Shown here piece by piece: positions 7,981 to 40,193 of a DNA stretch of 64,000 nt (within the stretch, counting starts at the first letter, position 1; each line of letters begins with the position of its first letter). Both the position numbers and the translations under genes were made by a program. The notes under the pieces are model-generated. The model did not search any database. It saw only the letters and a program-made list of their open reading frames with translations, and had not been told where the DNA came from. Origin of the DNA: Actinophytocola xinjiangensis. GTDB taxonomy: Bacteria; Actinomycetota; Actinomycetes; Mycobacteriales; Pseudonocardiaceae. The DNA is taken from positions 682,001 to 746,000 of the forward strand of contig NZ_MSIF01000001.1 in the NCBI RefSeq assembly GCF_001921215.1, in the 5' to 3' direction.

Positions 7981-9390
7981 TCAGTCGATGGCCAGGGTGA
8001 CGGTCCGGGGTTCGGTGAAGAAGTCCCTGCTGAACACGCCGCCCTCGCGGCCGATGCCGGAGTCGCCCGCGCCGCCGAACGGCGCCCGCAGGTCACGCAC
8101 GAAGAAGCAGTTGACCCAGACCGTCCCGCCGCGCAGCGCGGCCGCCACCCGGTGCGCGCGGTTGAGATCGGTGGTGAACAGCATCGCGTTGAGGCCGTAG
8201 GAGGTGTCGTTGGCCAGGCGTACCGCCTCCTGCTCGGTATCGAAGGGGGCGATCACGGCGACCGGGCCGAAGATCTCCTCCCGCCACAGCGGGCTGGCCG
8301 GTGGCACGCCGGTCAGCAGCGCCGGGGGGACGGTCCAGTCGTCGGTGGCCGGGAGCGGATGCCCGGCCATGGCCAGGTACGCGGTGACCTTCCGGTGGTG
8401 CTCGGCCGAGGAGAGCGGGCCGACCCGGGTCGCCGGGTCGCGCGGGTCACCCACCGGCATGGCCGCCGCCCGGTCGGCCAGCAGCCGGTGGAACTCGTCG
8501 TGGACCGGGCGCTGCACCAGGATCCTGGTGCCCGCCAGGCACATCTGGCCGGCGTTGCCGAACGCGGCGTGCGCGGCGTGATCGGCGGCGACCGCCAAGT
8601 CGGCGTCGGCGAACACCACCGAGGCGCCCTTGCCGCCCAGCTCCATGCTCACCGGGGTCAGGTTCGCCGAGGCGGCGGTGGCCACCGCCCGGCCGGTCGC
8701 CGACTCGCCGGTGAACGTCACCCGGTCGACGCCGGGGTGGGAGACCAGCCACTCGCCGGCGGCGTTCGGGCCCGGTCCGTGCACGACGTTGAGCACCCCC
8801 GGCGGGAAACCGGCCTCCAGCGCCAGGCGCGCCAGCGCGGTGGCCGACGCCGGGCTCTGCTCGGCCGGCTTGAGCACGACGGTGTTGCCCCAGGCCAGTG
8901 CCGGTGCGATCTTCCACGAGCCCAGCATGAGCGGGAAGTTCCACGGCGCGACGGCCGCGACCACACCGGCCGGGGGATAGCGGGTGTGGACGAGGTGGCC
9001 GCCGTCGGCGGGGAACACCTCGGCCGGACACAGCCGCGCGTGGTCGGCGAAGAAGCGGAAGTTGGCCGCCGCGCGGGGCACGTCCCTGGTCAGCACCTCG
9101 TGCCGGGGGCGGCCCATGTCCGAGGTGTCGGCCGTGGCCAACTCCTCGCCGTCGCGCACGATCAGGTCGGCCAGCCGGTGCAGCAGCCGGCCCCGTTCGG
9201 CGAAACCGAGCCGGGGCCAGTGGCCGTGGTCGGCCTCCTGCCGGGCGGCGCGGACCGCGCGGTCGACGTCGGCCGGGCCGGCGAGGGCGGCGCTGGCCCA
9301 CGCGCGTCTGGTCCACGGGTCCACCGACGCGAACCGCGCGCCGTCGGCCGACTCGGTCTCCCGGCCGGCGATGACGTGGGGGACGAACAC
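7981..9390 (-). CDS. Aldehyde dehydrogenase, 2-hydroxymuconate-semialdehyde type
   Basis: A 469-residue NAD(P)-dependent aldehyde dehydrogenase. The PWNFPLML segment, the general-base Glu in MELGGKGASVVF and the catalytic Cys in NAGQMCLAGTRI are all present. In catechol meta-cleavage the homologue oxidises 2-hydroxymuconate semialdehyde (or the 5-carboxymethyl analogue) to the dicarboxylate. Assignment to this subfamily rests mainly on the neighbours: it is the last gene of a four-gene operon after a 4-oxalocrotonate tautomerase and a 2-oxo-acid hydratase/decarboxylase. The start is a GTG four bases after the tautomerase stop. No extradiol dioxygenase is in the window, so its true substrate here is open. 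Confidence 0.85.
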   Translation of the reverse strand: MFVPHVIAGRETESADGARFASVDPWTRRAWASAALAGPADVDRAVRAARQEADHGHWPRLGFAERGRLLHRLADLIVRDGEELATADTSDMGRPRHEVLTRDVPRAAANFRFFADHARLCPAEVFPADGGHLVHTRYPPAGVVAAVAPWNFPLMLGSWKIAPALAWGNTVVLKPAEQSPASATALARLALEAGFPPGVLNVVHGPGPNAAGEWLVSHPGVDRVTFTGESATGRAVATAASANLTPVSMELGGKGASVVFADADLAVAADHAAHAAFGNAGQMCLAGTRILVQRPVHDEFHRLLADRAAAMPVGDPRDPATRVGPLSSAEHHRKVTAYLAMAGHPLPATDDWTVPPALLTGVPPASPLWREEIFGPVAVIAPFDTEQEAVRLANDTSYGLNAMLFTTDLNRAHRVAAALRGGTVWVNCFFVRDLRAPFGGAGDSGIGREGGVFSRDFFTEPRTVTLAID

Positions 9391-9394
9391 GGCG

Positions 9395-9580
9395 TCACCG
9401 GTCCGCGAGGATCGTGCCGCCGGCGATCACCTCGGCCGGTTCGACCTCGACGATCCAGGCGCGGACCGACGTCCTCGGTGTGCCGGTCGACGTCTCGACG
9501 GCGTCGGCCAGTGCCGCGAGCAGGGCGCGTTTCTGTTCGGCCGTGCGGCCGGCGGCCATGGTGACCTGGATGAACGGCAT
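9395..9580 (-). CDS. 4-oxalocrotonate tautomerase family enzyme
   Basis: A 61-residue protein of the small hexameric 4-OT type. Pro directly follows the initiator Met and becomes the catalytic N-terminal base. The conserved Arg in the GRTAEQK segment and the VRAWIVEV strand with its second Arg are present. The family interconverts 2-hydroxymuconate and 2-oxohex-3-enedioate, or related enol/keto acids. A GAGGAG ribosome site precedes the ATG. It lies between the hydratase/decarboxylase and aldehyde dehydrogenase genes in the order expected for the oxalocrotonate branch of meta-cleavage. Confidence 0.88.
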   Translation of the reverse strand: MPFIQVTMAAGRTAEQKRALLAALADAVETSTGTPRTSVRAWIVEVEPAEVIAGGTILADR

Positions 9581-9589: not shown

Positions 9590-10285
9590 TCAGCTGATCG
9601 TCACGAGCAGATCCCGGCCGCCGCCGCGTACGCGGACCTCGCCGCGCCGCGCCGGGACGGCGGCCGTGGGGGAGCCGAGCAGCACGACCTCCCCGGCGCG
9701 CAGGCCGCCGACCTCGCCGGCCAGCCACGCCAGGTGCGGTCCGGCCGGGTCCAGCTCGCCGGCGCCGGCCGGCTCGTCGTCGACGAACAGCTGGAGCGGC
9801 CCGGGTGTCACCGCCTCGCCGGCGACCACCGCCGCACCGCCGGAGGCGTTGTCGGCGATCACGTCGGCGATGGTGAACCGGTAGGCGCGCCACACGCTGT
9901 CCAGGACGTCGAGGGCGAGCACGTACTTCTCGACGGCGTCGGCCGCCCGCCGGGCGTCGGTCCCCGGCGGCACGTCCGCGCCGAGCACCGCCGCCAGCTC
10001 CGGCTCGATCCGGGGTTGGATGAACCGGTCGAGCCGGACCGTGGCCGGCGCGCGCAGCAGGTCGGACTGGCCGAGGTGGCCCCGGATGGGCTCGGACATC
10101 CCCATCTGCTCCTGCTTGGCGCGGCTGACCAGGCCGAGCTTCCAGCCCACCCGCGCCTGGCCGAAGACCTCGCGCTGCACCTGGTAGGCCTGCTCGACCG
10201 TCAACCGGGCCGGCGGCGCGTCGACCGCCGTCCTGGTGCGCCGGGCCGTGCGGATGGTGTCCCGCACCGTCTCCACGGCGATCAC
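9590..10285 (-). CDS. 2-oxo-acid hydratase / 4-oxalocrotonate decarboxylase family
   Basis: A 231-residue member of the fumarylacetoacetase-like family that holds 2-keto-4-pentenoate hydratase and 4-oxalocrotonate decarboxylase. The Lys of GWKLGLVSRAKQ, the metal-ligand segment RIEPELAAVLG and the D-x-I-A-D-N-A-S-G-G block are all present. Decarboxylase and hydratase cannot be told apart by eye. With the tautomerase and semialdehyde dehydrogenase beside it, decarboxylation of 2-oxohex-3-enedioate to 2-hydroxypenta-2,4-dienoate is the simplest reading. The GTG start overlaps the methyltransferase stop (GTGA). No 4-hydroxy-2-oxovalerate aldolase follows, so a five-carbon unsaturated 2-oxo acid could accumulate and serve as a precursor. 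Confidence 0.82.
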   Translation of the reverse strand: MIAVETVRDTIRTARRTRTAVDAPPARLTVEQAYQVQREVFGQARVGWKLGLVSRAKQEQMGMSEPIRGHLGQSDLLRAPATVRLDRFIQPRIEPELAAVLGADVPPGTDARRAADAVEKYVLALDVLDSVWRAYRFTIADVIADNASGGAAVVAGEAVTPGPLQLFVDDEPAGAGELDPAGPHLAWLAGEVGGLRAGEVVLLGSPTAAVPARRGEVRVRGGGRDLLVTIS

Positions 10286-11250
10286 CCGGCCCTGCGGGCG
10301 AGCATCAGCAGGGCGCCGGGCATCGTCGGGCGCACCTCGCGGGCGACGGTGAACCCGGCGTCGGCCAGCACCGCGTGCCAGCCGGGCGCGTCCAGCAGTC
10401 GCTGGCCCATGAGGGCGTGGACCAGCGTGAACTCGGGGCTGAACAGCTGGCCGGGTTCGGTCGTCGCCGGGGTGACCTCGGCGATCAGCAGGTGCGCGCC
10501 GGCCGGCAGTCGCCGGGCCAGGCCGCGCAGGTGGTCGACCAGCGCCGCGCGTCCGGCGGCGAGGATCTCGTGCAGCAGGAAGAAGGTGACGACCAGGTCG
10601 GTGGCGGCGATTCCGGGGAGCGCGGCGAGGTCACCGGCGTCGAGCTGGCGCACCGACACGGTGCCGGCGGCGCCGGCCGCGCTGATCTCCCGTTCGGCCT
10701 CCGCGCAGGCCCGGGAGTCCTCGTCGACCCCGGTCCCGGTGGCGCCGAACCGGCGGCAGATCTCCAGCAGGAACCGGGCGTTGCCGCAGCCGAGGTCGAG
10801 CACCCTGGTCACGCGCGTTCCGTCGAGCAGATCGAGGGCCTGGGGGACCAGGTCGCGGGCGCCGACCAGCGCCGACCCGACCGCCACGCCGCTGCCGTCG
10901 CGGCCGGCGTGGTCGTCGGTGCCGCGCGCGCCGGTGACGAACTCGGCGATCGACCGCATCGGCAGGCCGTAGCCCCGGCTGAGCCACACGAGGTAGCCGA
11001 TGTCGGCGCGGATCGCGTCGCCGAGCGGGGTGAACCGATGTCGGTCGCCGCACTCCTCGACGATCCCGCGCGCCGCCAGGTAGTCCAGCAGCGGTGCGCC
11101 CAGACCGTGGGAATCGGGGGCGAGCCGGCCGGTGGCGGCCAGCTCCGCAAGCAGTCCCGCCGTTTCCAGAGAGGCGAGAGTCGCGCACAGGGAAAACCCG
11201 GAAAACAGGTCGAAGGCGGGTCGGGCAGCAGTGTTCAAATCGATGACCAC
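10282..11250 (-). CDS. SAM-dependent methyltransferase
   Basis: A 322-residue class I methyltransferase: an N-terminal helical, winged-helix-like part (residues 1-90), then the SAM fold with motif I VLDLGCGNARFLLEI. The GTG at 11250 is chosen because the protein-like sequence starts there and the upstream DNA is AT-rich regulatory sequence; a longer frame reaches 11355. It is the first gene of the operon with the meta-cleavage-type enzymes and divergent from the ACP operon. It could O-methylate the hydroxymalonyl-ACP made by the FkbH set, although it is longer than and not obviously like FkbG, or it could methylate the aromatic or peptide intermediate. Confidence 0.75.
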   Translation of the reverse strand: MVIDLNTAARPAFDLFSGFSLCATLASLETAGLLAELAATGRLAPDSHGLGAPLLDYLAARGIVEECGDRHRFTPLGDAIRADIGYLVWLSRGYGLPMRSIAEFVTGARGTDDHAGRDGSGVAVGSALVGARDLVPQALDLLDGTRVTRVLDLGCGNARFLLEICRRFGATGTGVDEDSRACAEAEREISAAGAAGTVSVRQLDAGDLAALPGIAATDLVVTFFLLHEILAAGRAALVDHLRGLARRLPAGAHLLIAEVTPATTEPGQLFSPEFTLVHALMGQRLLDAPGWHAVLADAGFTVAREVRPTMPGALLMLARRAG

Positions 11251-11461
11251 GACCTCGACGTTAGCGCCTCGGTGATTGTCAAACAATTTAGCGTTGCTGG
11301 ACGAACGCTTCGCGATCGATGAAGGCGCGAAATGCCCGGGACTCTTAAGCAACACCGGACGATCCGTTGTGAAACCGTTGAAGAATGGTGTTTCGAGAGG
11401 TTACTACCAGCGAAAAGTGAAGTCAACCGGTGAAATAGTTCCGGAAGTCCGGTAGGAAGGG
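11251..11461. promoter_or_regulatory. Divergent control region of the two main cluster operons
   Basis: This gene-free stretch between the methyltransferase and ACP genes is much more AT-rich than its surroundings. It holds three small dyads: ATTGT-3-ACAAT (11275-11287), AGCGTT-8-AACGCT (11290-11309) and CCGGA-2-TCCGG (11441-11452). The last lies just before the ACP ribosome site AGGAAGG. The first two lie close to the methyltransferase start. Binding of the cluster's own LysR or LuxR regulator is plausible but unproven. No confident -35/-10 pair was settled on. Confidence 0.5.
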
Positions 11462-11776
11462 ATGGCGACGGCAATTCTTGACGAATATTTGGGGGCCGCC
11501 TTGCAGAGTCCGCCCGAAGGCCGCGTGTCCAATGATGTCGAGTTGGAAATCATGCGCTATCTGGAATCGGAATTCGAGGATTCGGGGATCGATCGTTGCG
11601 CCGATATCTTCGCGCTCGGGTATGTCAACTCGCTGTTCGCCCTCGAACTGGTGACGTTCGTGGAACGCAGATTCGACATCACCATCGGAACCGACGACCT
11701 CGACCTGGACAACTTTCGCAGCGTCGAGGCGATGGCCCGGCTGGTCGGGACCATCCGGGCGGCGGCGGGACGATGA
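11462..11776 (+). CDS. Discrete acyl carrier protein, FkbJ type
   Basis: A 104-residue carrier protein. Ser57 in LGYVNSLFALELVTF is the phosphopantetheine site (VNS instead of the usual DSL), and the DDLDLDNFRSVEAMARLV tail matches, from memory, the ACPs of methoxymalonyl-ACP pathways (FkbJ, AsmE). The family carries a glyceryl unit that is oxidised to hydroxymalonyl and then O-methylated. It leads an eleven-gene operon and overlaps the acyl-CoA dehydrogenase gene by four bases. Codons at the 5' end are unusually AT-rich for this window (ATT, GAA, TAT, TTG), probably to keep the mRNA start unstructured. Confidence 0.88.
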   Translation: MATAILDEYLGAALQSPPEGRVSNDVELEIMRYLESEFEDSGIDRCADIFALGYVNSLFALELVTFVERRFDITIGTDDLDLDNFRSVEAMARLVGTIRAAAGR

Positions 11777-12867
11777 ACGCCCTCGCCCAGGACCTGCGCC
11801 GCTTCGCCGAGGACCACGCGGCGGCCGCCGGTGAGTGGGACCGGGCCGGCGCACTGCCCGACGAGGTGGTGCGCGCGGTCGCCGCCCGGGGCTGGCTCGG
11901 CGCGGCGGTGCCCGACACCCACGGCGGCCGGCGGCTCGACCCGGTCTCCTTCGGCGAGCTGTGCGCGGGACTCGGTGGCGTGTGCTCGTCGCTGCGCGGT
12001 CTGCTGACCGTCCAGTCGATGGTGGCCGACGTGATCGCCCGCCGGGGCGAGGACCACCACCGCGCCTGGCTGCCCGACCTGGCCGCCGGCCGCGTGATCG
12101 CCGCCCTGGCGGCCACCGAGGACGGCGCCGGCAGCGACCTGGCCGCCGTGGGCACCCGCGTCGAACCGGTCCCCGGCGGTCTGCGGATCAGCGGACGCAA
12201 GCGCTGGGTCACCTTCGGCGAGACCGCCGGCCTCTACCTGGTCCTCGGCGTCACCCCGAGGGGCCCGACCGCGGTCCTGGTGCCCCGCGACGCCGGCGGG
12301 ATCACCGTGGAGCCGGTGCGCGGCCAGCTCGGGCTGCGCGCGGCGATGATCGCCCACGTCACGTTCGACGGCGTCGTGGTGCCGGCCGCGCACCGGCTCG
12401 GCGCTGCCGGCGCCGGGCTGACCCACGTGGTCGCCGCCGCGCTCGACCACGGCCGGTACAGCGTCGCCTGGGGCTGTGTCGGCATGGCCCGCGCCTGCCT
12501 GGACCTCTCCGCCCGGCACGCGGTGGCCCGCTCCGGTCGCCTCGCCCAGCACCAGCTGGTCCGCCGGCTGGTCACCGACATGGTCGCCGGCGTGACCACG
12601 GCCCGGCTGCTGTGCGAACACGCCGCCGGGCACCCCCGCCCGGACCGCACGATGCTGGCCAAGTACGTCGCCGCGCGCACCGCGGCCCAGGTCACCCGCG
12701 ACGCCGTCCAGGTGCTGGGCGCCGCCGGCTGCGCGCCGGGACATCCGGCCGAGCGGTTCTTCCGGGACGCCAAGCTCATGCAGCTGATCGAGGGCACCGA
12801 CGAGATCTGCCAGACCCACGTCTGCGACGCCGAGTTCCGCCGGCACGCGACCCGGGGAGCGGCCTGA
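11773..12867 (+). CDS. Acyl-CoA dehydrogenase-like flavoprotein, FkbI type
   Basis: A 364-residue acyl-CoA dehydrogenase with the flavin-binding ATEDGAGSDLAAV region, the C-terminal four-helix bundle and the FFRDAKLMQLIEGTDEI motif. In methoxymalonyl-ACP biosynthesis FkbI-type enzymes oxidise the carrier-bound C3 unit. Position directly after the FkbJ-type ACP and near FkbH supports this. The ATG overlaps the ACP stop (ATGA) and its own TGA overlaps the next ATG (TGATG). Acting on the ACP-bound unit rather than a CoA ester is inferred from the context. Confidence 0.87.
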   Translation: MNALAQDLRRFAEDHAAAAGEWDRAGALPDEVVRAVAARGWLGAAVPDTHGGRRLDPVSFGELCAGLGGVCSSLRGLLTVQSMVADVIARRGEDHHRAWLPDLAAGRVIAALAATEDGAGSDLAAVGTRVEPVPGGLRISGRKRWVTFGETAGLYLVLGVTPRGPTAVLVPRDAGGITVEPVRGQLGLRAAMIAHVTFDGVVVPAAHRLGAAGAGLTHVVAAALDHGRYSVAWGCVGMARACLDLSARHAVARSGRLAQHQLVRRLVTDMVAGVTTARLLCEHAAGHPRPDRTMLAKYVAARTAAQVTRDAVQVLGAAGCAPGHPAERFFRDAKLMQLIEGTDEICQTHVCDAEFRRHATRGAA

Positions 12868-13859
12868 TGCGGGTCAAGCGGATCGCCACCCACCTGCCGG
12901 CCACGACCGTCGCGGTGTCCGGGCTGGCGCGGACCGAGGACCTCGACGAGCAGGCCGCCGCGACGCTCGACCGGCTCGGCGTGCACGAGGTACGCGACGC
13001 CGGCACGGCCACCGAGGTCGACCTGGCCCACGCCGCCGCCGTCACCGCCTGCGCCGACGCCGGGGTCGACCCGGCCGGGCTGGACGCGGTGATCCTGGTG
13101 CAGGGCCGGGCGCCGCAGTACCTGCTGTCCTCCGAGGCGGCCCGGCTCCAGCACGCCGTCGGGGCCGACCGGGCGTTCACCGTCGGGGTCGGCGACCTGG
13201 GCTGCGTGTCCTCCTCGGCGGCGCTCACGGTCGCACGCGGCCTGTTCGCCGCCCACCCCGGGTGGCGCTCGGCGCTGGTCGCCATGGGCGTGCGCACGGC
13301 GGCACCGGCGCGGTACCGGGCGCCGATGACCGTGCTCGGCGACGGTGGCCAGGCCGCCGTGCTGACCCCGGACGACGGCCCGTGGCGGCTGGTGGACCAG
13401 GATCTGCGGGTCAACGGCGGGTACGCCGACCTGTTCCGCATCCGCTACCGCGAGACCGGTGCACCCGGCTGGCGCGAGGAGTGCACCGACCTGCCGGGCT
13501 ACTCCTTCCGCCTGGCAGTGGAAAGCCGTGCCCAGCTGACCGGGATGACCAGGGAACTGTTGGCGCGCAACGGATGCGGGCCCGGTGACGTGGCCTGGCT
13601 GATGCAGAACCTGTCCGCCGGTGCCATCGCGTTCTGGCAGCGGGCGCTGGGCGTGGAGCTGCTGGGGGTGTGCGCGGCCAACCTGCGCCGCTACGGCCAC
13701 CTCGGCCCCGCCGACGTGCTGCTCAACCTCGACCACGCCGCGCCGCTGCTGCGGGCCGGCGACCGCGTCCTCGTCCTGAACAGCAGCCCGGTCGCGGCCT
13801 GGAGCTGCGCGCTGTTCGAGTACGTGCCCGACCGAACCCCGGAGAGGACACCCCGATGA
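12867..13859 (+). CDS. KAS III-like condensing or acyl-transfer enzyme with altered active site
   Basis: A 330-residue thiolase-fold protein of FabH size. The nucleophile Cys113 lies in GDLGCVSSSAAL, as in KAS III. The usual catalytic His (in HQAN) is replaced in AWLMQNLSAG, and the usual Asn region reads RYGHLGPADVLLNL, giving a His and an Asp in a new place. Such changes occur in KAS III relatives that transfer acyl groups instead of making C-C bonds (CerJ, for instance). It sits between the acyl-CoA dehydrogenase and FkbH genes with overlaps on both sides. It may move an acyl unit between the discrete ACP and the assembly line; this is inference. Confidence 0.75.
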   Translation: MRVKRIATHLPATTVAVSGLARTEDLDEQAAATLDRLGVHEVRDAGTATEVDLAHAAAVTACADAGVDPAGLDAVILVQGRAPQYLLSSEAARLQHAVGADRAFTVGVGDLGCVSSSAALTVARGLFAAHPGWRSALVAMGVRTAAPARYRAPMTVLGDGGQAAVLTPDDGPWRLVDQDLRVNGGYADLFRIRYRETGAPGWREECTDLPGYSFRLAVESRAQLTGMTRELLARNGCGPGDVAWLMQNLSAGAIAFWQRALGVELLGVCAANLRRYGHLGPADVLLNLDHAAPLLRAGDRVLVLNSSPVAAWSCALFEYVPDRTPERTPR

Positions 13860-21352: not shown

Positions 21353-27445
<6,093 letters not shown>

Positions 27446-27449
<4 letters not shown>

Positions 27450-31977: not shown

Positions 31978-32476
31978 GGTCCTCCGTCGGGAAGTCCGCT
32001 ATGGCGGTGAAACCGCCCTGGTAGAACAGCAGCGGCGCGCCGGTGCCGATCGCCGTGCCGGTGACCAGGCCCAGGACCAGCACGTGGTCGCCGCCGTCGT
32101 GCCGGCTCCACGGCTCACAGTCCACATAGGCCAGACAGCCGGCCAGTCGCCGGCCGCCCCCGTCGCCGCGCCAGGCCACCTCCGACAGGCGCCGCCCGCC
32201 GGCGAAGTGCACGGCCAGGTCGCGCTGGCCGGCGGCGAGGATGTTCACCGTGAACGGGACCGCGCCCAGCGCCCGGCCCGCCCGGCTGGCCCGGTCCACC
32301 GACACCAGCACCAGCGGCGGGCGCAGCGACACCGAGGCGAACGCGTTCACCGTGAGACCGCGCACGCCGTCGGGGCCCGGATAGGTGATGACCGTGACCC
32401 CGCTGGCGAACCGGCCGAGCAGGGTGCGGAACCGGGTGGGGTCGACGGTCCCGCCTCGGTGGTCAGTCCTGGGCAC
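31961..32476 (-). CDS. Flavin reductase (DIM6/NTAB family)
   Basis: A 171-residue flavin reductase domain protein with LLGRFASGVTVITY at the N-terminus and LTVNAFASVSLRPPLVLVSVD as the flavin-binding region. It would supply reduced FAD to the two-component HpaB-type hydroxylase encoded two genes upstream, as HpaC or SgcE6 do. The GTG start lies 14 bases inside the end of the dioxygenase gene, and its own end overlaps the UbiD start, so the operon is tightly coupled. Confidence 0.9.
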   Translation of the reverse strand: MPRTDHRGGTVDPTRFRTLLGRFASGVTVITYPGPDGVRGLTVNAFASVSLRPPLVLVSVDRASRAGRALGAVPFTVNILAAGQRDLAVHFAGGRRLSEVAWRGDGGGRRLAGCLAYVDCEPWSRHDGGDHVLVLGLVTGTAIGTGAPLLFYQGGFTAIADFPTEDHDRHP

Positions 32477-33221: not shown

Positions 33222-34747
33222 GTCCGCTCCTTGCCGTCGAGGTGACCGTCGAGGTGACCGTCGCCGCCACCGGCGAGGTCCGGGACGGTCCAGCCGTCCA
33301 GGTCGTACTCGGCCAGGCAGCGTTCGACCAGGTCGTCGAACTCGCCGAGCCGTCCGCTGTTCTCCATGGCCGTCACCAGGTCCACCCGCACGGCCTCGTG
33401 GTTGCCCGCGTAGTTGCGCTCGTACAGCTCGTGCCGGCCACCGAACTCGGTGCCGGTGGCGTCCCACAACAGCTTCATCACCTTCACCCGCTCCACGGCG
33501 GTGGTGCCGCCGCTGCCCCGCAGGTACTTGTCCAGGTAGGGCCGCACCGCCGGGTTCGCGAAGTCCCGCGCGCTGGAGTTGACGTAGATCAGCCCACTGC
33601 CGACGTCCTGCTGGACGATCTCCCGGATCCTCGGGTAGCCCACGGTCATGAACCACCGGTAGGCCATGCCGTACTCGGGGTTGGGCAGCACGGACCCGTC
33701 GTGCCATGGCACCGGGTCGCGGGCCATCGCGGTGCCCAGCCCGGCGAACAGGTTGCGCCAGGCCAGCACCTCGCCGAGCCGGGCCCGGACCCCGCGGAAC
33801 CCGCCGGTGCCGGTGATCCGCAGCGCCTTGGCCAGCAGCCCGGCGACGAACTCCAGCTTCACCGTCAGCCGCACACAGCCCTGGAAGGTGAACCGGGGCA
33901 GGAAACCGGAGGCGGGGAAGAACGAGTTCGCCCGCTCCACGTCGCGGTGGACGAACACGTCCTCCCACGGCACCAGCACCCGGTCCAGCACGAAGATCGT
34001 GTCGTTCTCGTCCATTCTGGACGAGAGCGGGTAGTCGAAAGGGCTCGCCGAGGCGGTGGCGGCGGTGTAGGAAGGCCGGCAGATCAGCTTCACGCCCGGC
34101 GCGCCGACCGGCACGGTGAACACCACCGCGAACTCCGGGCTGCTGATCGCCAACCCGTGGTGGGCCACGAAGTTGTAGTGCGTGATGGCCGATCCGGTCG
34201 CCACCACCTTGGCGCCGCTGACCACCAGCCCCGCGTCGGTCTCCCGTTCCACGTGGACGAACGTGTCGCCGACCTGGTCGGCCGGCAGGCCACGGTCCAC
34301 CGGCGGGTGGATGATCGCGTGGTTCCAGTACAGGACCTCCTCCTGGGAGCGGCGGTACCAGCGCAGCGCGTTCTCCTCGAACGGCGCGTAGAACGGCGCG
34401 TTGGCGCCCAGCGTGCCGAGGAAGCTGGCCTTGTAGTCGGGGCTACGGCCCATCCAGCCGTAGGTCATCCGCGCCCAAGCGGTGATCGCCTCCTTGTCCC
34501 GCACCAGGTCGGCGGCGTCGCGGGCGGCGCGGAAGAACGCGTGGGTCCGCCCGCCGCTGCCGGTGTCGGTCGGCGCGGTGAGCCGCCCGGCGGTCGCCGG
34601 GTCGTGCAGCGCGTCGTAGAGCCGGGCGATCATCCGCACCGGGTTGCGGAAGGCCGGGTGGGTGGTCACGTCGGCGACCCGTTCCCCGTCCAGCCACACC
34701 TCGCGCCCGTCGCGCAGGCTCTCCACGTACTCGTCGCCGGTCAGCAC
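33218..34747 (-). CDS. HpaB-type FAD-dependent aromatic 3-hydroxylase
   Basis: A 509-residue 4-hydroxyphenylacetate 3-monooxygenase family protein. The N-terminal MTGDEYVESLRDGREV-like start, VTTHPAFRNPVR, YGWMGRSPDYKASF and VGSGLIYVNSSARDF blocks are close, from memory, to Sam5, the p-coumarate 3-hydroxylase of Saccharothrix espanaensis. It should hydroxylate a phenol ortho to its OH, turning p-coumarate into caffeate, or a beta-tyrosyl unit as SgcC does. It uses reduced FAD from the flavin reductase downstream. The GTG start overlaps the end of the ammonia-lyase gene (GTGCTGA). Confidence 0.9.
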   Translation of the reverse strand: MLTGDEYVESLRDGREVWLDGERVADVTTHPAFRNPVRMIARLYDALHDPATAGRLTAPTDTGSGGRTHAFFRAARDAADLVRDKEAITAWARMTYGWMGRSPDYKASFLGTLGANAPFYAPFEENALRWYRRSQEEVLYWNHAIIHPPVDRGLPADQVGDTFVHVERETDAGLVVSGAKVVATGSAITHYNFVAHHGLAISSPEFAVVFTVPVGAPGVKLICRPSYTAATASASPFDYPLSSRMDENDTIFVLDRVLVPWEDVFVHRDVERANSFFPASGFLPRFTFQGCVRLTVKLEFVAGLLAKALRITGTGGFRGVRARLGEVLAWRNLFAGLGTAMARDPVPWHDGSVLPNPEYGMAYRWFMTVGYPRIREIVQQDVGSGLIYVNSSARDFANPAVRPYLDKYLRGSGGTTAVERVKVMKLLWDATGTEFGGRHELYERNYAGNHEAVRVDLVTAMENSGRLGEFDDLVERCLAEYDLDGWTVPDLAGGGDGHLDGHLDGKERT

Positions 34748-36369
34748 GCCGGCACCGCCACGGTCGTGGTCACCTCGCGTCGCAGGGTCCCGGCGCGGAT
34801 CAGTTCGGCCACGGCGGCCACGTCGCCGTCCAGGCGCCGGTCGCCGGAGACGAACGGGGACACCGACCGGATCAGCTCGTGCGCCCGGCGTACCGCCGGT
34901 GCCGCCAGCTCCACCCCGCGCAGCTCGACCGCCTGTGCCAGCGCCAGCAGGTGGATGGCGGCGACCTGGCGGGTCAGCTCGACCACGGTGCGGGCGTCGC
35001 GCGCGGCGATGGTGCCCATGCTGACCTTGTCCTGGTTGTGCGCCTCGGTGGAGCGGGAGAACACGGTGGCGGGACCGGAGTGCTTGAGCGCCTCGGCGGT
35101 GATCGCCGAGCAGGCGATCTGCATGCCCTTGAACCCGTGCTCGACCCCGGCGTCCTCGTGGTCGTCGGGGTGCGGGACGGCGAGGTTGGCCGGCAGGCCG
35201 GCGTTGAACTTCTCGTCCACCACCAGTTCGAGTTGGCGGTCGAGCAGGTCGGCGACGTTGGCGACGGCGACCTTGAGGCTGTCCATGGCCTGGCCGAGGT
35301 GTCCGGCGTAGAAGTTGCCGCCGTGGTGGACCTGCCCGGCCGCCCCGGCGAACAGCGGGTTGTCGGTACTGGAGTTGATCTCGGTGCGGACCCACCGGCC
35401 CGCCCAGTCCAGCGTGTCCCGCAGCACTCCGGTCACGTGCGGGGCGCAGCGGATCGAGTACTTGTCCTGGATGCGTTCGTCCTGCCGCACGTAGCCGCGT
35501 CCGTCCAGCGACTCGGTGCGGGTCAGGATGTCCTCGTAGGAGGTGGTCAGCGCGGAGCCGTCGAGCAGGGCGCGGATCGTGGCGGCGCTGGTGGTCTGCC
35601 CGGGGTGGGGCTTGCTGTCGTGGACGAACGGGTGGAAGTGCGAGGCGTTGCCGCGCAACGCCTCGCAGGCCATGGCGGTGGCCAGGTCGGCGACGAAGGC
35701 GAGTTCGGTGGCGTCGGCGCAGGCCAGCGCGGCGAACGCGGCGGTGAACGACGTGCCGTTGATCAGCGCCAGACCTTCCTTGGGCTCCAACGAGAGCGGG
35801 GCGAGCCCTTCGTCGGCCAGGGCGTCGGCCGCCGGACGCGTCCGGCCACGGTGGCCGACCTCGACCTCGCCGATCAGCGCGCCCGCGACGTAGCACAGGG
35901 GCACCAGGTCGCCGCTGGCGCCGAGCGAGCCCAGCTCCGGGATCCGGGGCGTGATCCCGCGTTCCACCAGACGCAACAGCAGCTCGACCAGCTCCGGGCG
36001 GACCCCGGACGCGCCCCTGGCCAGCGAGTTGGCCCGGATCAGCAGGGTCGCCCTGGCCACATCGTCCTCGGCGAGCGGTCCGGCGCCGTTGAGGTGGTAG
36101 AGCACCAGGTTGCGTTGCAGCCGGGCGGCCCGCTCGGGGGCGACGTGCCGTTCGACGCTGTCGCCGAAGCCCGTGGTGACCCCGTAGACCGGGATCCGCT
36201 TGTCGACCAGTGCCCGCCGCAGCTCCAGCGACGAGACCATCGCCGCGACCGCGTCGTCGGCCACGCGCAGGGTGATCGTGTCGGACGTCCTGGCCACGGC
36301 CAGGACGTCCTCGATGGTGAGATGGTGCCCGTCGAGCACCATGGTGGCGCCCGGTCCTGGTTCGGTCAT
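34741..36369 (-). CDS. MIO aromatic amino acid ammonia-lyase or aminomutase
   Basis: A 542-residue member of the HAL/PAL/TAL family. The MIO triad Ala151-Ser152-Gly153 lies in ELGSLGASGDL, the catalytic Tyr is Tyr62 (VYGVTTGFG), and DKYSIRCAP and the EAHNQDKVS block are present. The selectivity site reads NLVLYHLNGAG (Tyr91-His92); in known enzymes a His here favours tyrosine, so tyrosine is a reasonable guess over phenylalanine or histidine. Deamination would give p-coumarate; 2,3-aminomutation would give beta-tyrosine, and the two cannot be separated by eye. It is first in the operon with hydroxylase, dioxygenase, flavin reductase and decarboxylase. AAGGAG precedes the ATG. Confidence 0.88.
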   Translation of the reverse strand: MTEPGPGATMVLDGHHLTIEDVLAVARTSDTITLRVADDAVAAMVSSLELRRALVDKRIPVYGVTTGFGDSVERHVAPERAARLQRNLVLYHLNGAGPLAEDDVARATLLIRANSLARGASGVRPELVELLLRLVERGITPRIPELGSLGASGDLVPLCYVAGALIGEVEVGHRGRTRPAADALADEGLAPLSLEPKEGLALINGTSFTAAFAALACADATELAFVADLATAMACEALRGNASHFHPFVHDSKPHPGQTTSAATIRALLDGSALTTSYEDILTRTESLDGRGYVRQDERIQDKYSIRCAPHVTGVLRDTLDWAGRWVRTEINSSTDNPLFAGAAGQVHHGGNFYAGHLGQAMDSLKVAVANVADLLDRQLELVVDEKFNAGLPANLAVPHPDDHEDAGVEHGFKGMQIACSAITAEALKHSGPATVFSRSTEAHNQDKVSMGTIAARDARTVVELTRQVAAIHLLALAQAVELRGVELAAPAVRRAHELIRSVSPFVSGDRRLDGDVAAVAELIRAGTLRREVTTTVAVPAC

Positions 36370-36555: not shown

Positions 36556-37176
36556 ATGACGGCACCACCCGGGGAAATCAGGGTCCTGGTCAACGAACGC
36601 GAGTCCGTGGTCCGGTCGGCCATCGCCCGGCTCGGTGGGATCGTCTGTGCCGGCGCGGTCGGGGACCCGGCCGACGTCGTCGGGGCGGTGGCCGCGACCG
36701 GTGCGCGGGTCGTGGTCTACGACGAGGCGGGCCTGGGGCACCAGGCCGTGTCCGAGTCGCTGGCCGGCCTGGTCGCCCCCCGCGCGGTGGTGCTGGCCGG
36801 TGACGGTGTCCCGCCCGCGCGGCACCTGGCCGGCGGTGCCTTCGGCCTGGTGCCGCGCACGGCCGCCCCGGCGGAACTGGGGCTGGCGATCCGGGCGGTG
36901 GCCGGGGGCGGGATGTACCTGGCGGCCGACCACGCCGGGCGCCTGCTGGAGACCCTGACCGGTGGTTCCGGCGTTCGCGGGCTGACCCTGCGCCAGCACG
37001 AGGTGCTCGACCTGCTGGCCACCGGCGCCTCCAACGCCGAGATCGCCTCGGTGCTCTCGGTGAGCGAGAAAACCGTGAAATCACATGTGTCGGGCATTCT
37101 CAACCGGCTCAACCTGCGCAACCGCACCCAGGTGCTGGCCTACCTGATGAGCTGCGAACGGATCCCGGTCCGATGA
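36556..37176 (+). CDS. LuxR-family (NarL-type) regulator with atypical receiver
   Basis: A 206-residue regulator. The C-terminal LuxR helix-turn-helix (LTLRQHEVLDLLATGASNAEIASVLSVSEKTVKSHV, about residues 140-175) is complete. The N-terminal 120 residues look like a response-regulator receiver, but the usual acidic pair at its start reads VLVNERESVV; an Asp56 (VVVYDEAG) may be the phosphorylation residue. Such orphan atypical receivers are common in antibiotic clusters and may answer to end products. No sensor kinase is nearby. Its stop overlaps the UbiX start, so it is co-transcribed with the cofactor gene and probably controls the divergent ammonia-lyase operon. Confidence 0.85.
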   Translation: MTAPPGEIRVLVNERESVVRSAIARLGGIVCAGAVGDPADVVGAVAATGARVVVYDEAGLGHQAVSESLAGLVAPRAVVLAGDGVPPARHLAGGAFGLVPRTAAPAELGLAIRAVAGGGMYLAADHAGRLLETLTGGSGVRGLTLRQHEVLDLLATGASNAEIASVLSVSEKTVKSHVSGILNRLNLRNRTQVLAYLMSCERIPVR

Positions 37177-37784
37177 GCGGCCCCCGCCGGATCGTCGTCG
37201 GCGTGACCGGCGCGACCGGGACGGTGTACGCGGTGCGGCTGTTGACGGCGTGCCGTTCGGCCGGCCTGGAGACCCATCTCGTGGTGTCCTCGTCGGGCGA
37301 GCTGACCAGGGCGACCGAGACCGACCTGAGCCGTGCGGACCTGCACGGGCTGGCCGACGTGGTGCACCGGCCCGGCGACTTCACCGCCCCGGTGGCCAGC
37401 GGTTCGTTCCCCACGATGGGCATGGTGGTCGCGCCGTGCTCGGTGCGCACGCTCTCGGCGATCGCCTACGGCACCACCGACAACCTGCTCACCCGCGCGG
37501 CCGACGTGACCCTCAAGGAGCGCCGGCGGCTGGTGCTGCTGTTCCGCGAGACGCCGTTGACCATGGGCCACATCCGGGCGATGGCGGCGGCGACCGAGTC
37601 GGGCGCGGTGGTTTTCCCCCCGGTACCGGCGTTCTACACCCGACCGGACTCGCTGGCCGACGTCGTCGAGCACACCGTCGCCCGGGTTCTTGACCAATTT
37701 GGACTGTCCACTGTGCTCGATGTGCCGCGGTGGGGCCTGTCCGGCGTGGACGGAAGGAATTATCAGCGTTCGTCCTCGGCGTAA
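37173..37784 (+). CDS. UbiX-family flavin prenyltransferase
   Basis: A 203-residue flavoprotein with the N-terminal VVGVTGATGTVYAVRLL Rossmann motif, GSFPTMGMVVAPCSVRTLS and the RRLVLLFRETPLTMGHIR block typical of UbiX/Pad1. It joins dimethylallyl phosphate to FMN to make the prenyl-FMN cofactor that UbiD enzymes need. Pairing with the UbiD decarboxylase in the same cluster is strong functional evidence for both calls. It is coupled to the LuxR gene by an ATGA overlap. Confidence 0.93.
   Translation: MSGPRRIVVGVTGATGTVYAVRLLTACRSAGLETHLVVSSSGELTRATETDLSRADLHGLADVVHRPGDFTAPVASGSFPTMGMVVAPCSVRTLSAIAYGTTDNLLTRAADVTLKERRRLVLLFRETPLTMGHIRAMAAATESGAVVFPPVPAFYTRPDSLADVVEHTVARVLDQFGLSTVLDVPRWGLSGVDGRNYQRSSSA
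37705..37715 (+). repeat. Copy 3 of the 11-mer TGTCCACTGTG
   Basis: Lies near the 3' end of the UbiX gene, encoding Leu-Ser-Thr-Val in the same frame as copy 1 and sharing the preceding C with it (12 identical bases). Confidence 0.6.
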
Positions 37785-37865: not shown

Positions 37866-39152
37866 GTGGATGAATCGACGGCGGATGACACCGGCACGGT
37901 GGGAACTGGGACCGAGGACGGGGTTGAGCCAACCACTTCCGCACCCGGTCGCCTGCCCGCCGCCTTCTACCGGCTGTTCTCCGCGGCCGTGGTCAGCGGC
38001 CTCGGCGACGGGCTGCGGTACACGGCCCTGCCGCTGCTGGCCGCGAGCATCAGCGACCGGCCGAGCGTCGTCGCGACGGTGACCGTGGCCGGCATGCTGC
38101 CCTGGCTGCTGTTCGGGCTGCTGGCCGGAGTCCTCGCGGACCGGGCCGACCGGCGTTCGCTGATGTGGATCACCGACTTCACGCGGTCGCTGCTGATCGC
38201 CGGGTTCGCGCTGCTGGTCGCCACGAGCACGATGTCGATCTGGCTGATCGCCGTCTTCGCGTTCGTCATCGGCTGTGCGCAGGTCATGTTCGACACCGCC
38301 GCCGGCGCGTTCCTGCCGGCCGTCGTCGCGCCGGAACAACTCGGCGCGGCCAACGGCCGGTTGATGTCGGCGCAGGTGCTGACCTCCCAGTTCATCGGCC
38401 CGCCGATCGCCGGCCTGCTGTTCGCGGTGTCGGTGGTGTGGCTGTTCGTCATCGACTCCATCGGGTTCCTGGTGGCCGCCGTGCTGGTGCTGACGCTGCG
38501 CGTGGCCAGGCAGGGCCCGGCGACCAGCGGCGGCTCGGTCGGCTCCGACCTGATGGACGGCCTGCGCTGGCTCAACCGGCACCGCGTGCTGCGCGACCAG
38601 TCGGTGCTCTACGTGGCGATGGCGTTCGTCAGTGGCGCCCTGCTCGGCGTGTTCGTGCTCTACGTCAAGCAGGACCTCGACCTCGGCGGCTTCGGCTACG
38701 GCCTGCTGATGGCGTGCTTCGCGCTGGGCAACCTCGTGGTGGCGCCGCTGGTGCCGAGGATCCGGGGCGCGGTCGGCGACCGGGTCTCGCTGTCGGCGTC
38801 GGTGGTCACCGTGGTGGTGACGCTCACGGCGCTCGGCACGCTGCCGCACCCGGTCGTCGCCGGCCTCGCGCTGCTGCTGTTCGGCGGGGCTGTGATGAAC
38901 TGGATGGTCGTCACGGTCACCATGCGCCAGGAGATGGTGCCCGACCAGCTGCTCGGCCGGGTGACCAGCACCTACCGCATGCTGGGCTTCGCGGCCAACC
39001 CGTTCGGCGCGCTGGCCGGCGGGGCGATCGCCACGGCCGTCGGCATCCGGTCGATGCTGCTGGTCGGCGCTGCGGTGGTCGTGGTGTCCGCGCTGGCGTT
39101 CCGCCGGGGCCTGGACAGCCAGCAGATCCTGGATGACGAACCGGCCGGCTGA
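37866..39152 (+). CDS. MFS exporter, EntS/DHA3-like
   Basis: A 428-residue, twelve-helix major facilitator protein with LAGVLADRADRRSLMWITD between helices 2 and 3 and QVMFDTAAGAFLPAVV in the helix 4-5 region, as in EntS-like and macrolide-type exporters. The start is placed at GTG 37866, ten bases after GAGGGG; a longer frame from an ATG at 37818 would begin inside the predicted promoter. It lies between the UbiX and aminotransferase genes in the cluster and likely exports the cluster product, giving self-protection. Confidence 0.87.
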   Translation: MDESTADDTGTVGTGTEDGVEPTTSAPGRLPAAFYRLFSAAVVSGLGDGLRYTALPLLAASISDRPSVVATVTVAGMLPWLLFGLLAGVLADRADRRSLMWITDFTRSLLIAGFALLVATSTMSIWLIAVFAFVIGCAQVMFDTAAGAFLPAVVAPEQLGAANGRLMSAQVLTSQFIGPPIAGLLFAVSVVWLFVIDSIGFLVAAVLVLTLRVARQGPATSGGSVGSDLMDGLRWLNRHRVLRDQSVLYVAMAFVSGALLGVFVLYVKQDLDLGGFGYGLLMACFALGNLVVAPLVPRIRGAVGDRVSLSASVVTVVVTLTALGTLPHPVVAGLALLLFGGAVMNWMVVTVTMRQEMVPDQLLGRVTSTYRMLGFAANPFGALAGGAIATAVGIRSMLLVGAAVVVVSALAFRRGLDSQQILDDEPAG

Positions 39153-39155
39153 CCG

Positions 39156-40193
39156 ATGGCCGTGCGGATCAGACCCGAGCTGGCCCAGACCCCCGGCTAC
39201 ACCCCGGCGCCCGTGCCGCCCGACGCGATCCTGTTGGCCAACAACGAGGTTCCCGGCCCGCCGCTGCCCGGCGTGCCCGAGGCGGTCGCGGCCGCGACCG
39301 GGACGCTGCACCGCTATCCGGACGCGACCTCGACCCCGCTGGCCGCCGGCCTGGCGCGCCACCTGGGGGTGGCGCCGGACCGGGTGGTCGTCGGCGCCGG
39401 GTCGGCCGGCGTGTGCCTGCGGGTCCTCCAGGCCCTGTGCGAACCCGGCGACGAGGTGGCCTTCGGCTGGCGTTCCTTCGAGCTGTACCCGCTGCTGGCC
39501 CGGACGGTCGGCGCCGTGCCGCGACCGGTTCCGCTCAGCGGTGACCGGCTCGACCTGGACGCCCTGGCGTCGGCGACCGGCCGGCGGACGCGGGTGGTCC
39601 TGCTGTGCAACCCGAACAACCCCACCGGTACGGCCGTCACCGGGCACGAGCTGACCCGCTTCCTGGCCGCCGTGCCGCCCCACGTCCTGGTCGTGGTGGA
39701 CGAGGCGTACCGGGAGTTCGCGACCCCGGGCGCCGTGCCCGACGCCGTGGTGTCGAGCGGGCGGCATCCCCGGGTCGCGGTACTGCGCACGTTCTCCAAG
39801 GCCTACGGCCTGGCCGCGCTGCGGGTCGGCTACGGGGTACTGCCGGTCGAGGTCGCCGACGCCGTGCGCCGCGTCGCCCCACCCTTCGGCGTCAGCACGG
39901 TCGCCGAGGCCGCCGCCTCGGCCGCCCTGGCCGCGCACCCGGTGATGCTGGCCCGCTGCCGGGAACTGGCCGCCGAACGCGACCGGGTGCGCACGGCGTT
40001 GCTGGCGGCCGGGCACCGTGTTCCGGTCAGCCAGGCCAACTTCCTCTGGCTCCCGCTGGGCGAGCGGACCTCGGAGTTCGTCGCCCACTGCCGGGACCGG
40101 GGCATCGTCGTGCGCGGCTACGCCGGTGAGGGCGTCCGGGTCACCGTCGGCACCGCGTCCGACAACGACGCCTTCCTGGCCGCCGCCACCTGA
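39156..40193 (+). CDS. PLP-dependent aminotransferase, HisC/Pat-like
   Basis: A 345-residue fold-type I class II aminotransferase. CNPNNPTGT, VVVDEAYREF and the PLP-lysine segment RTFSKAYGLAALRVGY are all present. Family members act on histidinol phosphate or aromatic 2-oxo acids. Starting three bases after the MFS stop, it is probably part of the cluster, where it could aminate a 2-oxo acid to give an NRPS building block, possibly one from the meta-cleavage-type branch. A housekeeping aromatic aminotransferase is the alternative. Confidence 0.85.
   Translation: MAVRIRPELAQTPGYTPAPVPPDAILLANNEVPGPPLPGVPEAVAAATGTLHRYPDATSTPLAAGLARHLGVAPDRVVVGAGSAGVCLRVLQALCEPGDEVAFGWRSFELYPLLARTVGAVPRPVPLSGDRLDLDALASATGRRTRVVLLCNPNNPTGTAVTGHELTRFLAAVPPHVLVVVDEAYREFATPGAVPDAVVSSGRHPRVAVLRTFSKAYGLAALRVGYGVLPVEVADAVRRVAPPFGVSTVAEAAASAALAAHPVMLARCRELAAERDRVRTALLAAGHRVPVSQANFLWLPLGERTSEFVAHCRDRGIVVRGYAGEGVRVTVGTASDNDAFLAAAT

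What the first reader, a model, noticed from the sequence alone, without database searches (positions are those of the whole stretch)
7981..40193. Unrecognised hybrid NRPS/PKS cluster that carries two aromatic-cleavage gene sets
Seen: three megasynthases, an FkbH/I/J/K-type extender set, two odd KAS III proteins, MbtH, a thioesterase, regulators and an exporter, flanked by an operon of meta-cleavage-type enzymes and an operon with MIO lyase, HpaB hydroxylase, intradiol dioxygenase, flavin reductase and UbiD. Known: each family is individually common. Inference: I recall no characterised cluster with this whole combination, so the product is probably a new scaffold containing an ornithine-like residue, a polyketide C2 unit and fragments of a cleaved aromatic ring.
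Basis: partly seen in the sequence, partly recalled or inferred. Interest (0 to 1): 0.85.

Follow-up and report, generated by a model that had tools for sequence, protein, structure and literature searches.

The report
NRPS-PKS cluster with borrowed phenol-degradation trio
A bacterium carries an antibiotic-style assembly line that probably builds an unusual peptide containing one glycerol-derived carbon unit, and beside it sits a set of aromatic-degrading enzymes that seems to have been cut short so that it makes a ring-opened tyrosine fragment instead of burning it; the product is unknown.

Summary
The gene inventory is essentially right. A complete FkbJ-I-H-K set serves a three-protein NRPS-PKS line (ACP-C-A-T / C-A-T / KS-ACP-C-A-T-TE) whose only PKS module lacks an acyltransferase (AT). 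Both "odd KAS III" proteins carry a Cys/Ser...His...Asp site like non-condensing acyltransferases. One, KAS3a, belongs to a clade found near AT-less KS-ACP proteins in 11 of 14 related loci (one locus has AT-containing modules instead) and near FkbH/I/K in 11 of 14, so it may do the missing AT's job. "Two aromatic-cleavage sets" does not hold. The left wing has no ring-cleaving enzyme: an alpha-keto-acid C-methyltransferase homologue with meta-pathway-like dehydrogenase and hydratase/decarboxylase homologues. The right wing has one: its flavin reductase-HpaB-dioxygenase trio matches a catabolic operon of related genomes, but lacks CatB/CatC and shares an operon with tyrosine ammonia-lyase and a bagremycin-type UbiD. 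Predicted chemistry: tyrosine, coumarate, 4-vinylphenol, 4-vinylcatechol, 3-vinylmuconate. No fetched locus held the core with a wing, and open-paper searches gave no such combination; MIBiG could not be searched. Whether the cleaved ring enters the peptide is unproven. Verdict: new variant of a known kind, moderately interesting.

The parts
7981..9390 (-). left wing: aldehyde dehydrogenase of the 2-aminomuconate/2-hydroxymuconate semialdehyde type; VRDLR motif kept
9590..10285 (-). left wing: 4-oxalocrotonate decarboxylase / 2-oxopent-4-enoate hydratase homologue (231 aa, short)
10282..11286 (-). left wing: alpha-keto-acid C-methyltransferase homologue (2-ketoarginine MT, MppJ)
11462..11776 (+). 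FkbJ-type discrete ACP
   Evidence: same type of small ACP, judged by eye, in 13 of 14 related loci
11773..12867 (+). FkbI-type acyl-CoA dehydrogenase homologue
12867..13859 (+). KAS3a: KAS III-like protein with C113-N248-H278-D283; proposed trans-acyltransferase
13856..14899 (+). FkbH (glyceryl loading)
   Evidence: TIGR01686 238.6 bits, over cut-off 146.65
14896..18288 (+). NRPS1: ACP-C-A-T; A pocket DVGEVITIDK (Orn-like, motif mapping)
18266..21352 (+). NRPS2: C-A-T; A pocket DASQVGVLFK
21345..27449 (+). PKS-NRPS3: KS-(no AT)-ACP-C-A-T-TE; A pocket DAFVVAAIMK
27440..28312 (+). FkbK-type 3-hydroxyacyl-CoA dehydrogenase homologue
28309..28479 (+). MbtH-like protein
28484..29560 (+). KAS3b: DpsC/CerJ/ChlB3-like, Ser115...His294...Asp299; proposed starter acyltransferase
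29557..30501 (+). LysR-type regulator
30532..31977 (-). right wing: UbiD decarboxylase, BagN/FevL-like; nearest PDB entry 6da6
31961..32476 (-). right wing: flavin reductase
32463..33221 (-). right wing: catechol 1,2-dioxygenase-type intradiol enzyme; iron-ligand motifs kept (roles recalled), several otherwise invariant positions changed
33218..34747 (-). right wing: HpaB-type monooxygenase, 65-69% identical to those of catabolic FlavRed-HpaB-CatA operons
34741..36342 (-). right wing: tyrosine ammonia-lyase, BagA-like, ASG (MIO) motif and HL selectivity pair (by eye)
36607..37176 (+). LuxR-type regulator
37173..37784 (+). UbiX flavin prenyltransferase (partner of UbiD)
37989..39152 (+). MFS exporter
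39156..40193 (+). HisC-like aminotransferase, possibly part of the cluster

Best explanation
A hybrid NRPS-PKS cluster with a tyrosine ring-opening side operon.
(1) FkbH loads a glyceryl group on the discrete ACP (FkbJ, 11462-11776); FkbK and FkbI oxidise it to hydroxymalonyl-ACP (known chemistry of these families, recalled; inferred here).
(2) KAS3a, a non-condensing KAS III-type acyltransferase with Cys-His-Asp, moves this unit to the carrier behind the AT-less KS of PKS-NRPS3 (inferred from active site and gene neighbourhoods).
(3) KAS3b, a Ser-His-Asp relative of DpsC, loads a starter acyl group on the N-terminal ACP of NRPS1 (inferred).
(4) The line joins starter, an Orn-like residue, a second residue, a hydroxylated C2 unit and a third residue; the TE releases the chain. 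Pfam shows no KR or DH in the PKS module, so an alpha-hydroxy-beta-keto unit is expected.
(5) The right wing converts tyrosine to p-coumarate (TAL), 4-vinylphenol (UbiD/UbiX), 4-vinylcatechol (HpaB plus flavin reductase) and 3-vinylmuconate (intradiol enzyme). It is a catabolic trio without CatB/CatC, so the muconate should persist as a precursor, perhaps the starter acyl group.
(6) The left wing modifies a 2-oxo acid, perhaps the precursor of the second or third residue. Steps 3, 5 (final use) and 6 are the least certain.
For: Domains and families. No AT: about 160 residues separate KS and ACP in PKS-NRPS3 and Pfam finds none. KAS3a clade: 15 matches besides the window's in 298 genomes of the order. 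14 of the 15 keep Cys-Asn-His-Asp; the other (L059) has a canonical FabH pattern. For those 14, within about 20 kb: a KS-ACP protein that Pfam shows without AT in 11, FkbH+FkbI+FkbK in 11, an FkbJ-type ACP, by eye, in 13. Control: 0 of 29 KAS3b-relative loci have FkbH within 1.5 kb. KAS3b aligns to DpsC, CerJ and ChlB3 with nucleophile, His and Asp in register; its nearest relative (L039, 53-54% identity) stands beside an NRPS with two carrier domains that by eye begins with an ACP. TAL and UbiD belong to BagA- and BagN-like groups, for which tyrosine to coumarate to p-vinylphenol is described (PMC6692506, passages). The HpaB-intradiol pair is adjacent in 11 of 29 intradiol-relative loci. All 11 have FlavRed-HpaB-CatA; 9 of 11 also CatB, 8 of 11 CatC. 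The window has neither; its only CatB match is a 28% superfamily hit at 44704-45891 in another operon.
Against: Of the 14 KAS3a loci, G118:C34 has an ordinary modular PKS with three AT domains nearby and no AT-less KS-ACP found; G008's KS is cut off by the contig end, so AT is undetermined; G197 shows no KS (contig ends 12 kb away). Six of the 11 AT-less proteins are KS-ACP-reductase, not KS-ACP-C as here. KAS3a's phmmer hits in the PDB are FabH and other KAS III (PqsD, CorB), not CerJ, ChlB3 or DpsC; its model resembles FabH, DpsC, ChlB3, CerJ and the tetronate enzyme AbyA1 about equally (TM 0.71-0.82 among the 50 listed), so the fold does not decide between transfer and condensation. G204 has the KS-ACP but no FkbH/I/K in 100 kb and no FkbJ seen in the 40 kb read for it; G014 has FkbI and FkbJ but no FkbH or FkbK on its 59-kb contig; G076 has FkbK and FkbJ, no FkbH and only weak FkbI. 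KAS3b has Asn where DpsC has His266. No ligase for a muconate was recognised in 7981-40193. The left-wing enzymes score below their equivalog cut-offs. The wings may be neighbours only: no second genome with the core plus a wing was found, so joint inheritance cannot be shown. A-pocket codes rest on recalled numbering.
Confidence: 0.42

Rival explanations
1. Two neighbouring but separate systems: an NRPS-PKS cluster (left wing to LysR) and an independent tyrosine/vinylphenol-derived pathway or detoxification operon with its own LuxR, UbiX and exporter.
For: The right-wing operon converges on LysR and has its own regulator, UbiX and MFS beside it. Its trio is homologous to a catabolic operon of related genomes. 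No fetched locus couples the two.
Against: Only 30 bp lie between LysR and UbiD. CatB/CatC are missing from the window, so the wing by itself would not feed central metabolism; whether CatB/CatC exist elsewhere in the genome was not searched. The core run itself holds no exporter.
Confidence: 0.35
2. KAS3a is not a transferase but a condensing or offloading enzyme acting on the glyceryl/hydroxymalonyl unit, as KAS III-like enzymes do in tetronate pathways (recalled).
For: Structural similarity to AbyA1, titled a tetronic acid condensing enzyme. FkbH and a KAS III-like gene also adjoin in tetronate clusters (recalled).
Against: His and Asn of condensing FabH are replaced by an Asn...His...Asp pattern in the window and 14 of 14 clade members. 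An AT-less KS-ACP protein stands near 11 of 14.
Confidence: 0.2
3. The PKS carrier is acylated by an AT encoded elsewhere, or FkbH acts on it directly; KAS3a transfers something else, e.g. onto a hydroxyl or amine.
For: The genome has 92 KS matches, so other PKSs could lend an AT. CerJ transfers malonyl to a sugar hydroxyl (PMC9573744, passages). In G118:C34 KAS3a and FkbH/I/J/K occur with AT-containing PKS modules.
Against: The association of KAS3a with AT-less KS-ACP proteins recurs in 11 of 14 loci of several genera.
Confidence: 0.28
4. One reading: two cleaved-ring precursors, one from each wing, are both built into the product.
For: The ALDH keeps motifs of muconate-semialdehyde dehydrogenases.
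Against: No extradiol dioxygenase among the annotated cluster genes; none over the catechol 2,3-dioxygenase cut-off in the genome.
Confidence: 0.1

Closest known systems
FkbG/H/I/J/K methoxymalonyl-ACP and zwittermicin-type hydroxymalonyl-ACP pathways (recalled)
   Same: FkbH, FkbI, FkbJ-type ACP and FkbK present
   Different: No FkbG-type O-methyltransferase and no AT recognised among the genes of 7981-40193; instead a KAS III-like protein sits between FkbI and FkbH and the KS module lacks an AT
CerJ / ChlB3 / DpsC KAS III-like acyltransferases
   Same: KAS3b aligns well and keeps nucleophile, His and Asp; KAS3a keeps Cys...His...Asp
   Different: KAS3a is not matched to them by sequence; KAS3b has Asn for the DpsC His266
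Bagremycin / ferroverdin p-vinylphenol branch (BagA, BagM, BagN)
   Same: TAL, UbiX and UbiD of similar groups
   Different: No aminohydroxybenzoate genes recognised among the annotated genes (not searched for as such); here the pathway continues through a monooxygenase and ring cleavage
Catechol ortho-cleavage operon FlavRed-HpaB-CatA-CatB-CatC of related genomes
   Same: HpaB 66-69% identical, intradiol enzyme and flavin reductase homologous, adjacent
   Different: CatB and CatC absent; TAL and UbiD in the same operon; gene order changed
Foxicin cluster (NRPS-PKS with an FkbH domain)
   Same: NRPS-PKS with glyceryl chemistry (PMC5318452, passages)
   Different: FkbH fused in the synthase, AT-containing modules; no FkbI/FkbK/KAS III in the passages seen

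Membership tests
Hybrid NRPS-PKS biosynthetic gene cluster | NRPS and PKS domains in one co-directional assembly line with release domain | tested here: met
FkbH/I/J/K extender-unit pathway | FkbH domain over curated cut-off | tested here: met
FkbH/I/J/K extender-unit pathway | discrete ACP plus FkbI and FkbK homologues | tested here: met
FkbH/I/J/K extender-unit pathway | product is hydroxymalonyl- or methoxymalonyl-ACP | not testable with these tools
   needs enzyme assay
CerJ/ChlB3-type KAS III-like acyltransferase (KAS3a) | Cys-His-Asp catalytic triad | tested here: met
   triad as described in PMC9573744 (passages)
CerJ/ChlB3-type KAS III-like acyltransferase (KAS3a) | recognised by sequence as a CerJ/ChlB3/DpsC relative | tested here: not met
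   only FabH-type and other KAS III hits at E 0.001
CerJ/ChlB3-type KAS III-like acyltransferase (KAS3a) | fold nearer to CerJ/ChlB3/DpsC than to FabH | tested here: inconclusive
   similar scores for both
DpsC/CerJ/ChlB3 group (KAS3b) | best sequence match and nucleophile-His-Asp in register | tested here: met
DpsC/CerJ/ChlB3 group (KAS3b) | Ser-His-His of DpsC | tested here: not met
   the first His is Asn263
KAS3a as partner of AT-less KS modules | AT-less KS-ACP protein near every clade member | tested here: not met
   11 of 14; G118:C34 has AT-containing modules, G008 undetermined, G197 none found
BagA/BagM/BagN p-vinylphenol branch | TAL + UbiD + UbiX of these groups | tested here: met
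   TAL and UbiD match these models best; UbiX matches BagM/FevK at 201 bits, behind general UbiX models; TAL, UbiD and UbiX all lie below the 'exception' cut-offs
Catechol ortho-cleavage (catABC) operon | CatA-type dioxygenase with CatB and CatC | tested here: not met
   no CatC and only a 28% superfamily match to CatB in the window
meta-cleavage operon (left wing) | extradiol ring-cleaving dioxygenase | tested here: not met
A known MIBiG cluster | high-similarity reference cluster | not testable with these tools
   MIBiG/antiSMASH not on hand

The most novel reading that the evidence does not exclude
KAS3a and its clade are a previously undescribed kind of trans-acyltransferase that hands an FkbH-made hydroxymalonyl unit from a discrete ACP to AT-less KS modules; in this cluster a degradation trio stripped of its lactonising enzymes supplies a vinylmuconate building block, so that an ortho-cleaved tyrosine ring is carried into a peptide.
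Probability: 0.23. Interest if true: 0.75.

Novelty: new variant of a known kind. Interest (0 to 1): 0.5.

Why it matters
If right, it answers how AT-less KS-ACP proteins in these clusters receive a glycerol-derived extender unit, and gives a sequence marker (FkbJ-FkbI-KAS3a-FkbH) for finding more of them. It would also show ortho-cleavage enzymes recruited from aromatic degradation to make, not destroy, a precursor. Both points can be tested with purified enzymes.

Tried and rejected
Left wing as a ring-cleaving set: rejected, no extradiol enzyme recognised in it; the genome's best candidate is on another contig beside another ALDH.

FkbJ absent: I first concluded this from a motif scan and my gene caller; both missed it, one search found it. 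I also tested whether the NRPS1 N-terminal ACP is an FkbJ: a small profile (built from 4 sequences, because my pattern caught 4 of the 14 regions) scored it like other carriers, so it is not specially FkbJ-like.

"AT-less in 13 of 14": my first count rested on KS alignments.

A close relative of the whole cluster: not found. KAS3b in 397 genomes of the order gave at best 48% identity (29 loci besides the window's were read, short flanks). One scan of genome contigs gave 5 loci, best 54%; none held FkbH or the wings' genes, apart from one weak MFS match. UbiD: 2 of 394 genomes of the class and 19 of 390 of the family, own included; of the 20 matches besides the window's none has the intradiol enzyme or TAL within about 10 kb, less where contigs end; one (L119) has HpaB and flavin reductase homologues (37-38%) about 5-7 kb away. 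Plasmids: 3 records with UbiD relatives below 60% identity, not followed up.

Cluster borders from relatives: the S8 protease 2811-6338 has orthologues (70-75%) in 4 of 5 same-genus genomes; in the stretches fetched around them only general NRPS, ALDH, MFS and permease matches to window genes appear, besides copies of the protease itself. The ABC-type gene 40198-42978 has only weak partial matches in 4 of 5. So borders are not set.

Structure as a judge of KAS3a function: uninformative.

Literature searches giving nothing on point; they cover open-access papers only, and their terms were narrow. Searches gave background.
Full report
Gene content. The core runs on the + strand from 11462 to 30501 as one tightly packed series: FkbJ-type ACP, FkbI, KAS3a, FkbH, NRPS1, NRPS2, PKS-NRPS3, FkbK, MbtH, KAS3b, LysR. 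Neighbouring ends overlap by 1-23 nt, or are 4 nt apart (MbtH/KAS3b) (coordinates; starts are the caller's choice). My caller missed the ACP at 11462-11776; it appeared when the genome was searched with a relative's ACP, and Pfam confirms a phosphopantetheine site.

Assembly line. NRPS1 is ACP-C-A-T, NRPS2 C-A-T and PKS-NRPS3 KS-ACP-C-A-T-TE. The KS keeps its Cys and both His motifs; all three C domains keep HHxxxDG; the TE keeps GxSxG (by eye on the sequence). KS and ACP are separated by about 160 residues, too few for an AT; Pfam finds linker domains at the KS end (RhiE-like, CurL-like) but no AT. The A pockets, read by motif mapping with recalled GrsA numbering, are DVGEVITIDK, DASQVGVLFK and DAFVVAAIMK. 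The first resembles recalled ornithine codes; the others match nothing that I recall.

The two KAS III proteins. KAS3b aligns best with DpsC, then CerJ and ChlB3, with Ser115, His294 and Asp299 in register; Ser is also present in 26 of 34 relatives read. The DpsC His266 is Asn here. PMC9573744 (passages) describes Cys-His-Asp in CerJ and ChlB3 as acyl-transferring and Ser-His-His in DpsC. KAS3a finds only FabH-type and other KAS III PDB sequences, but at the places of the condensing His and Asn of FabH it has Asn248 and His278, with Asp283 five residues on, as in CerJ. Of 15 matches besides the window's (298 genomes of the order), 14 share Cys-Asn-His-Asp; the fifteenth, L059, has the canonical FabH pattern. 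In an alignment of the window with the 14, the four residues are invariant. A model (pLDDT 87) fits FabH, DpsC, ChlB3, CerJ and AbyA1 about equally, so it does not settle the function.

KAS3a neighbourhoods. FkbI and FkbH flank KAS3a within 1.5 kb in 8 of the 15 matches. For the 14, stretches of up to 20 kb on each side were read. A match to the window's KS lies in 13 of 14. Pfam on the proteins themselves shows KS and ACP without AT in 11 of 14: G293, G132 (two loci), G014, G118:C55, G204, G283, G076, G264, G295 and G215. Five of these continue with a C domain, as in the window; six end in a reductase domain. The other three: G118:C34 has a modular PKS with three AT domains, a counterexample; G008's KS is cut by the contig end; G197 shows no KS, with a contig end 12 kb away. 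FkbH, FkbI and FkbK are all present in 11 of 14, and an FkbJ-type ACP, judged by eye, in 13 of 14. Also against strict coupling: G204 has no FkbH, FkbI or FkbK in 100 kb; G014 lacks FkbH and FkbK on its 59-kb contig; G076 lacks FkbH and has only weak FkbI matches. As a control, none of 29 KAS3b-relative loci has FkbH within 1.5 kb. How often an AT-less KS lies near an arbitrary KAS III gene was not measured. The simplest reading is that KAS3a does for these AT-less modules what an AT would do; this is inference.

KAS3b neighbourhoods. The nearest relative, in Streptantibioticus ferralitis (L039, 53-54%), is followed by an NRPS with two carrier domains, one of which by eye stands before its C domain, as in NRPS1. 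A starter-loading role is therefore proposed. L040 (Nocardia sp. CDC159) also has NRPS and KS genes beside its KAS3b relative.

Right wing. TAL-HpaB-intradiol-flavin reductase-UbiD overlap by 4-17 nt on the minus strand. TAL scores 717 bits with the NCBIfam BagA/FevW model and 407 with tyrosine 2,3-aminomutase, keeps ASG and has HL at the selectivity site (recalled meaning). UbiD scores 633 bits with BagN/FevL; its nearest PDB sequence is 6da6, a UbiD-like decarboxylase. In bagremycin biosynthesis such enzymes make p-vinylphenol from tyrosine (PMC6692506, passages; there the TAL is called FevV/BagA). The intradiol enzyme keeps the Tyr, Tyr, His, His motifs (ligand roles recalled).

Origin of the trio. 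The intradiol enzyme has relatives at E 1e-40 or better in 76 of 397 genomes of the order, own included, the best 50% identical. Of the 29 loci that this call handed over besides the window's, 11 have an HpaB 65-68% identical beside the dioxygenase. Fetched neighbourhoods of about 6-8 kb each side show flavin reductase, HpaB and CatA in 11 of 11, CatB in 9 of 11 and CatC in 8 of 11 (family names for sample genes, with a PcaR/PcaU-type regulator in L205). L209 and L213 are near-copies, so these counts are not fully independent. None of the 11 shows TAL or UbiD. The window has no CatC, and its only CatB match is a 28% superfamily hit in a different operon at 44704-45891. Against 10 of these relatives (L213 left out), the window's HpaB keeps 251 of 274 invariant positions but the dioxygenase only 64 of 85, with changes such as YY to FH in the GPYY motif. 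The ring-cleaving step thus looks more altered than the hydroxylation, as a new ring substituent could require; faster drift would look the same. The own genome has no second close CatA; two weaker intradiol relatives exist elsewhere, one beside CoA-transferase and protocatechuate-type genes (identification by eye). CatB and CatC elsewhere in the genome were not searched for.

Left wing. The methyltransferase is nearest to 8ftv (methyltransferase), 2-ketoarginine methyltransferase and MppJ and keeps two His that in MppJ bind the metal (role recalled). The hydratase/decarboxylase homologue keeps the E.E and Lys motifs in the alignment (roles recalled). The ALDH keeps VRDLR and FR, aligned with 2-aminomuconate-semialdehyde dehydrogenase. 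All three thus belong to families that act on 2-oxo or muconate-type acids, but no ring-cleaving enzyme goes with them. One weak hydratase paralogue exists elsewhere. The best extradiol candidate in the genome is on another contig beside another ALDH. One speculative use is a C-methylated 2-oxo acid that becomes an amino acid for the line.

Is it one cluster? The left wing shares a divergent region of about 175 bp with the core (11286 to 11462, by the chosen starts); the right wing converges on LysR with 30 bp between. No fetched locus has the core with either wing, so shared inheritance is untested. UbiD relatives in the family (18 other genomes of 390) occur without the trio's dioxygenase or TAL nearby. 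I hold the core at about 0.75, KAS3a as transferase at about 0.45 (0.5), the right wing making vinylmuconate at about 0.5 and its incorporation at about 0.3.

Novelty. Open-paper searches with terms for ring-cleavage enzymes in NRPS clusters, vinylcatechol, and FkbH with KAS III or hydroxymalonyl gave nothing on point. MIBiG was not available. I rate it a new variant of a known kind: each part is known; the KAS3a association and the truncated degradation trio are the unusual points.

Noticed in passing
43059-48228: An operon with SDR, amidohydrolase, MR_MLE-family enzyme and class III aminotransferase beside an IclR-like regulator (by eye); looks like sugar-acid or amino-acid catabolism, and its MR_MLE protein is the only (28%) CatB match in the window.
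   Followed up: partly
48487-52596: Two large tandem paralogous proteins (662 and 693 aa) followed by Gfo/Idh-, solute-binding- and ABC-permease-like genes; identified by eye only.
   Followed up: no
2811-6338: S8 peptidase-type protein with orthologues of 70-75% identity in 4 of 5 same-genus genomes, without orthologous window neighbours in the stretches fetched.
   Followed up: partly
6457-7979: A 381-aa protein without a Pfam match and a 126-aa partner just upstream of the cluster.
   Followed up: no
L082-L118 (UbiD relatives): UbiD of the BagN-like group occurs in 18 other genomes of the family, often beside UbiX and sometimes near PKS genes; several may be uncharacterised clusters.
   Followed up: partly
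L075-L076, L079-L080, L155-L156, L161-L166: A second type of cluster with KAS3a, FkbJ, FkbK and (five of six loci) FkbI and FkbH, an AT-less KS-ACP-reductase protein and separate A and carrier proteins.
   Followed up: partly
L039:11258-15565: The NRPS beside the nearest KAS3b relative (Streptantibioticus ferralitis) has a nitroreductase-family domain behind its A domain.
   Followed up: no
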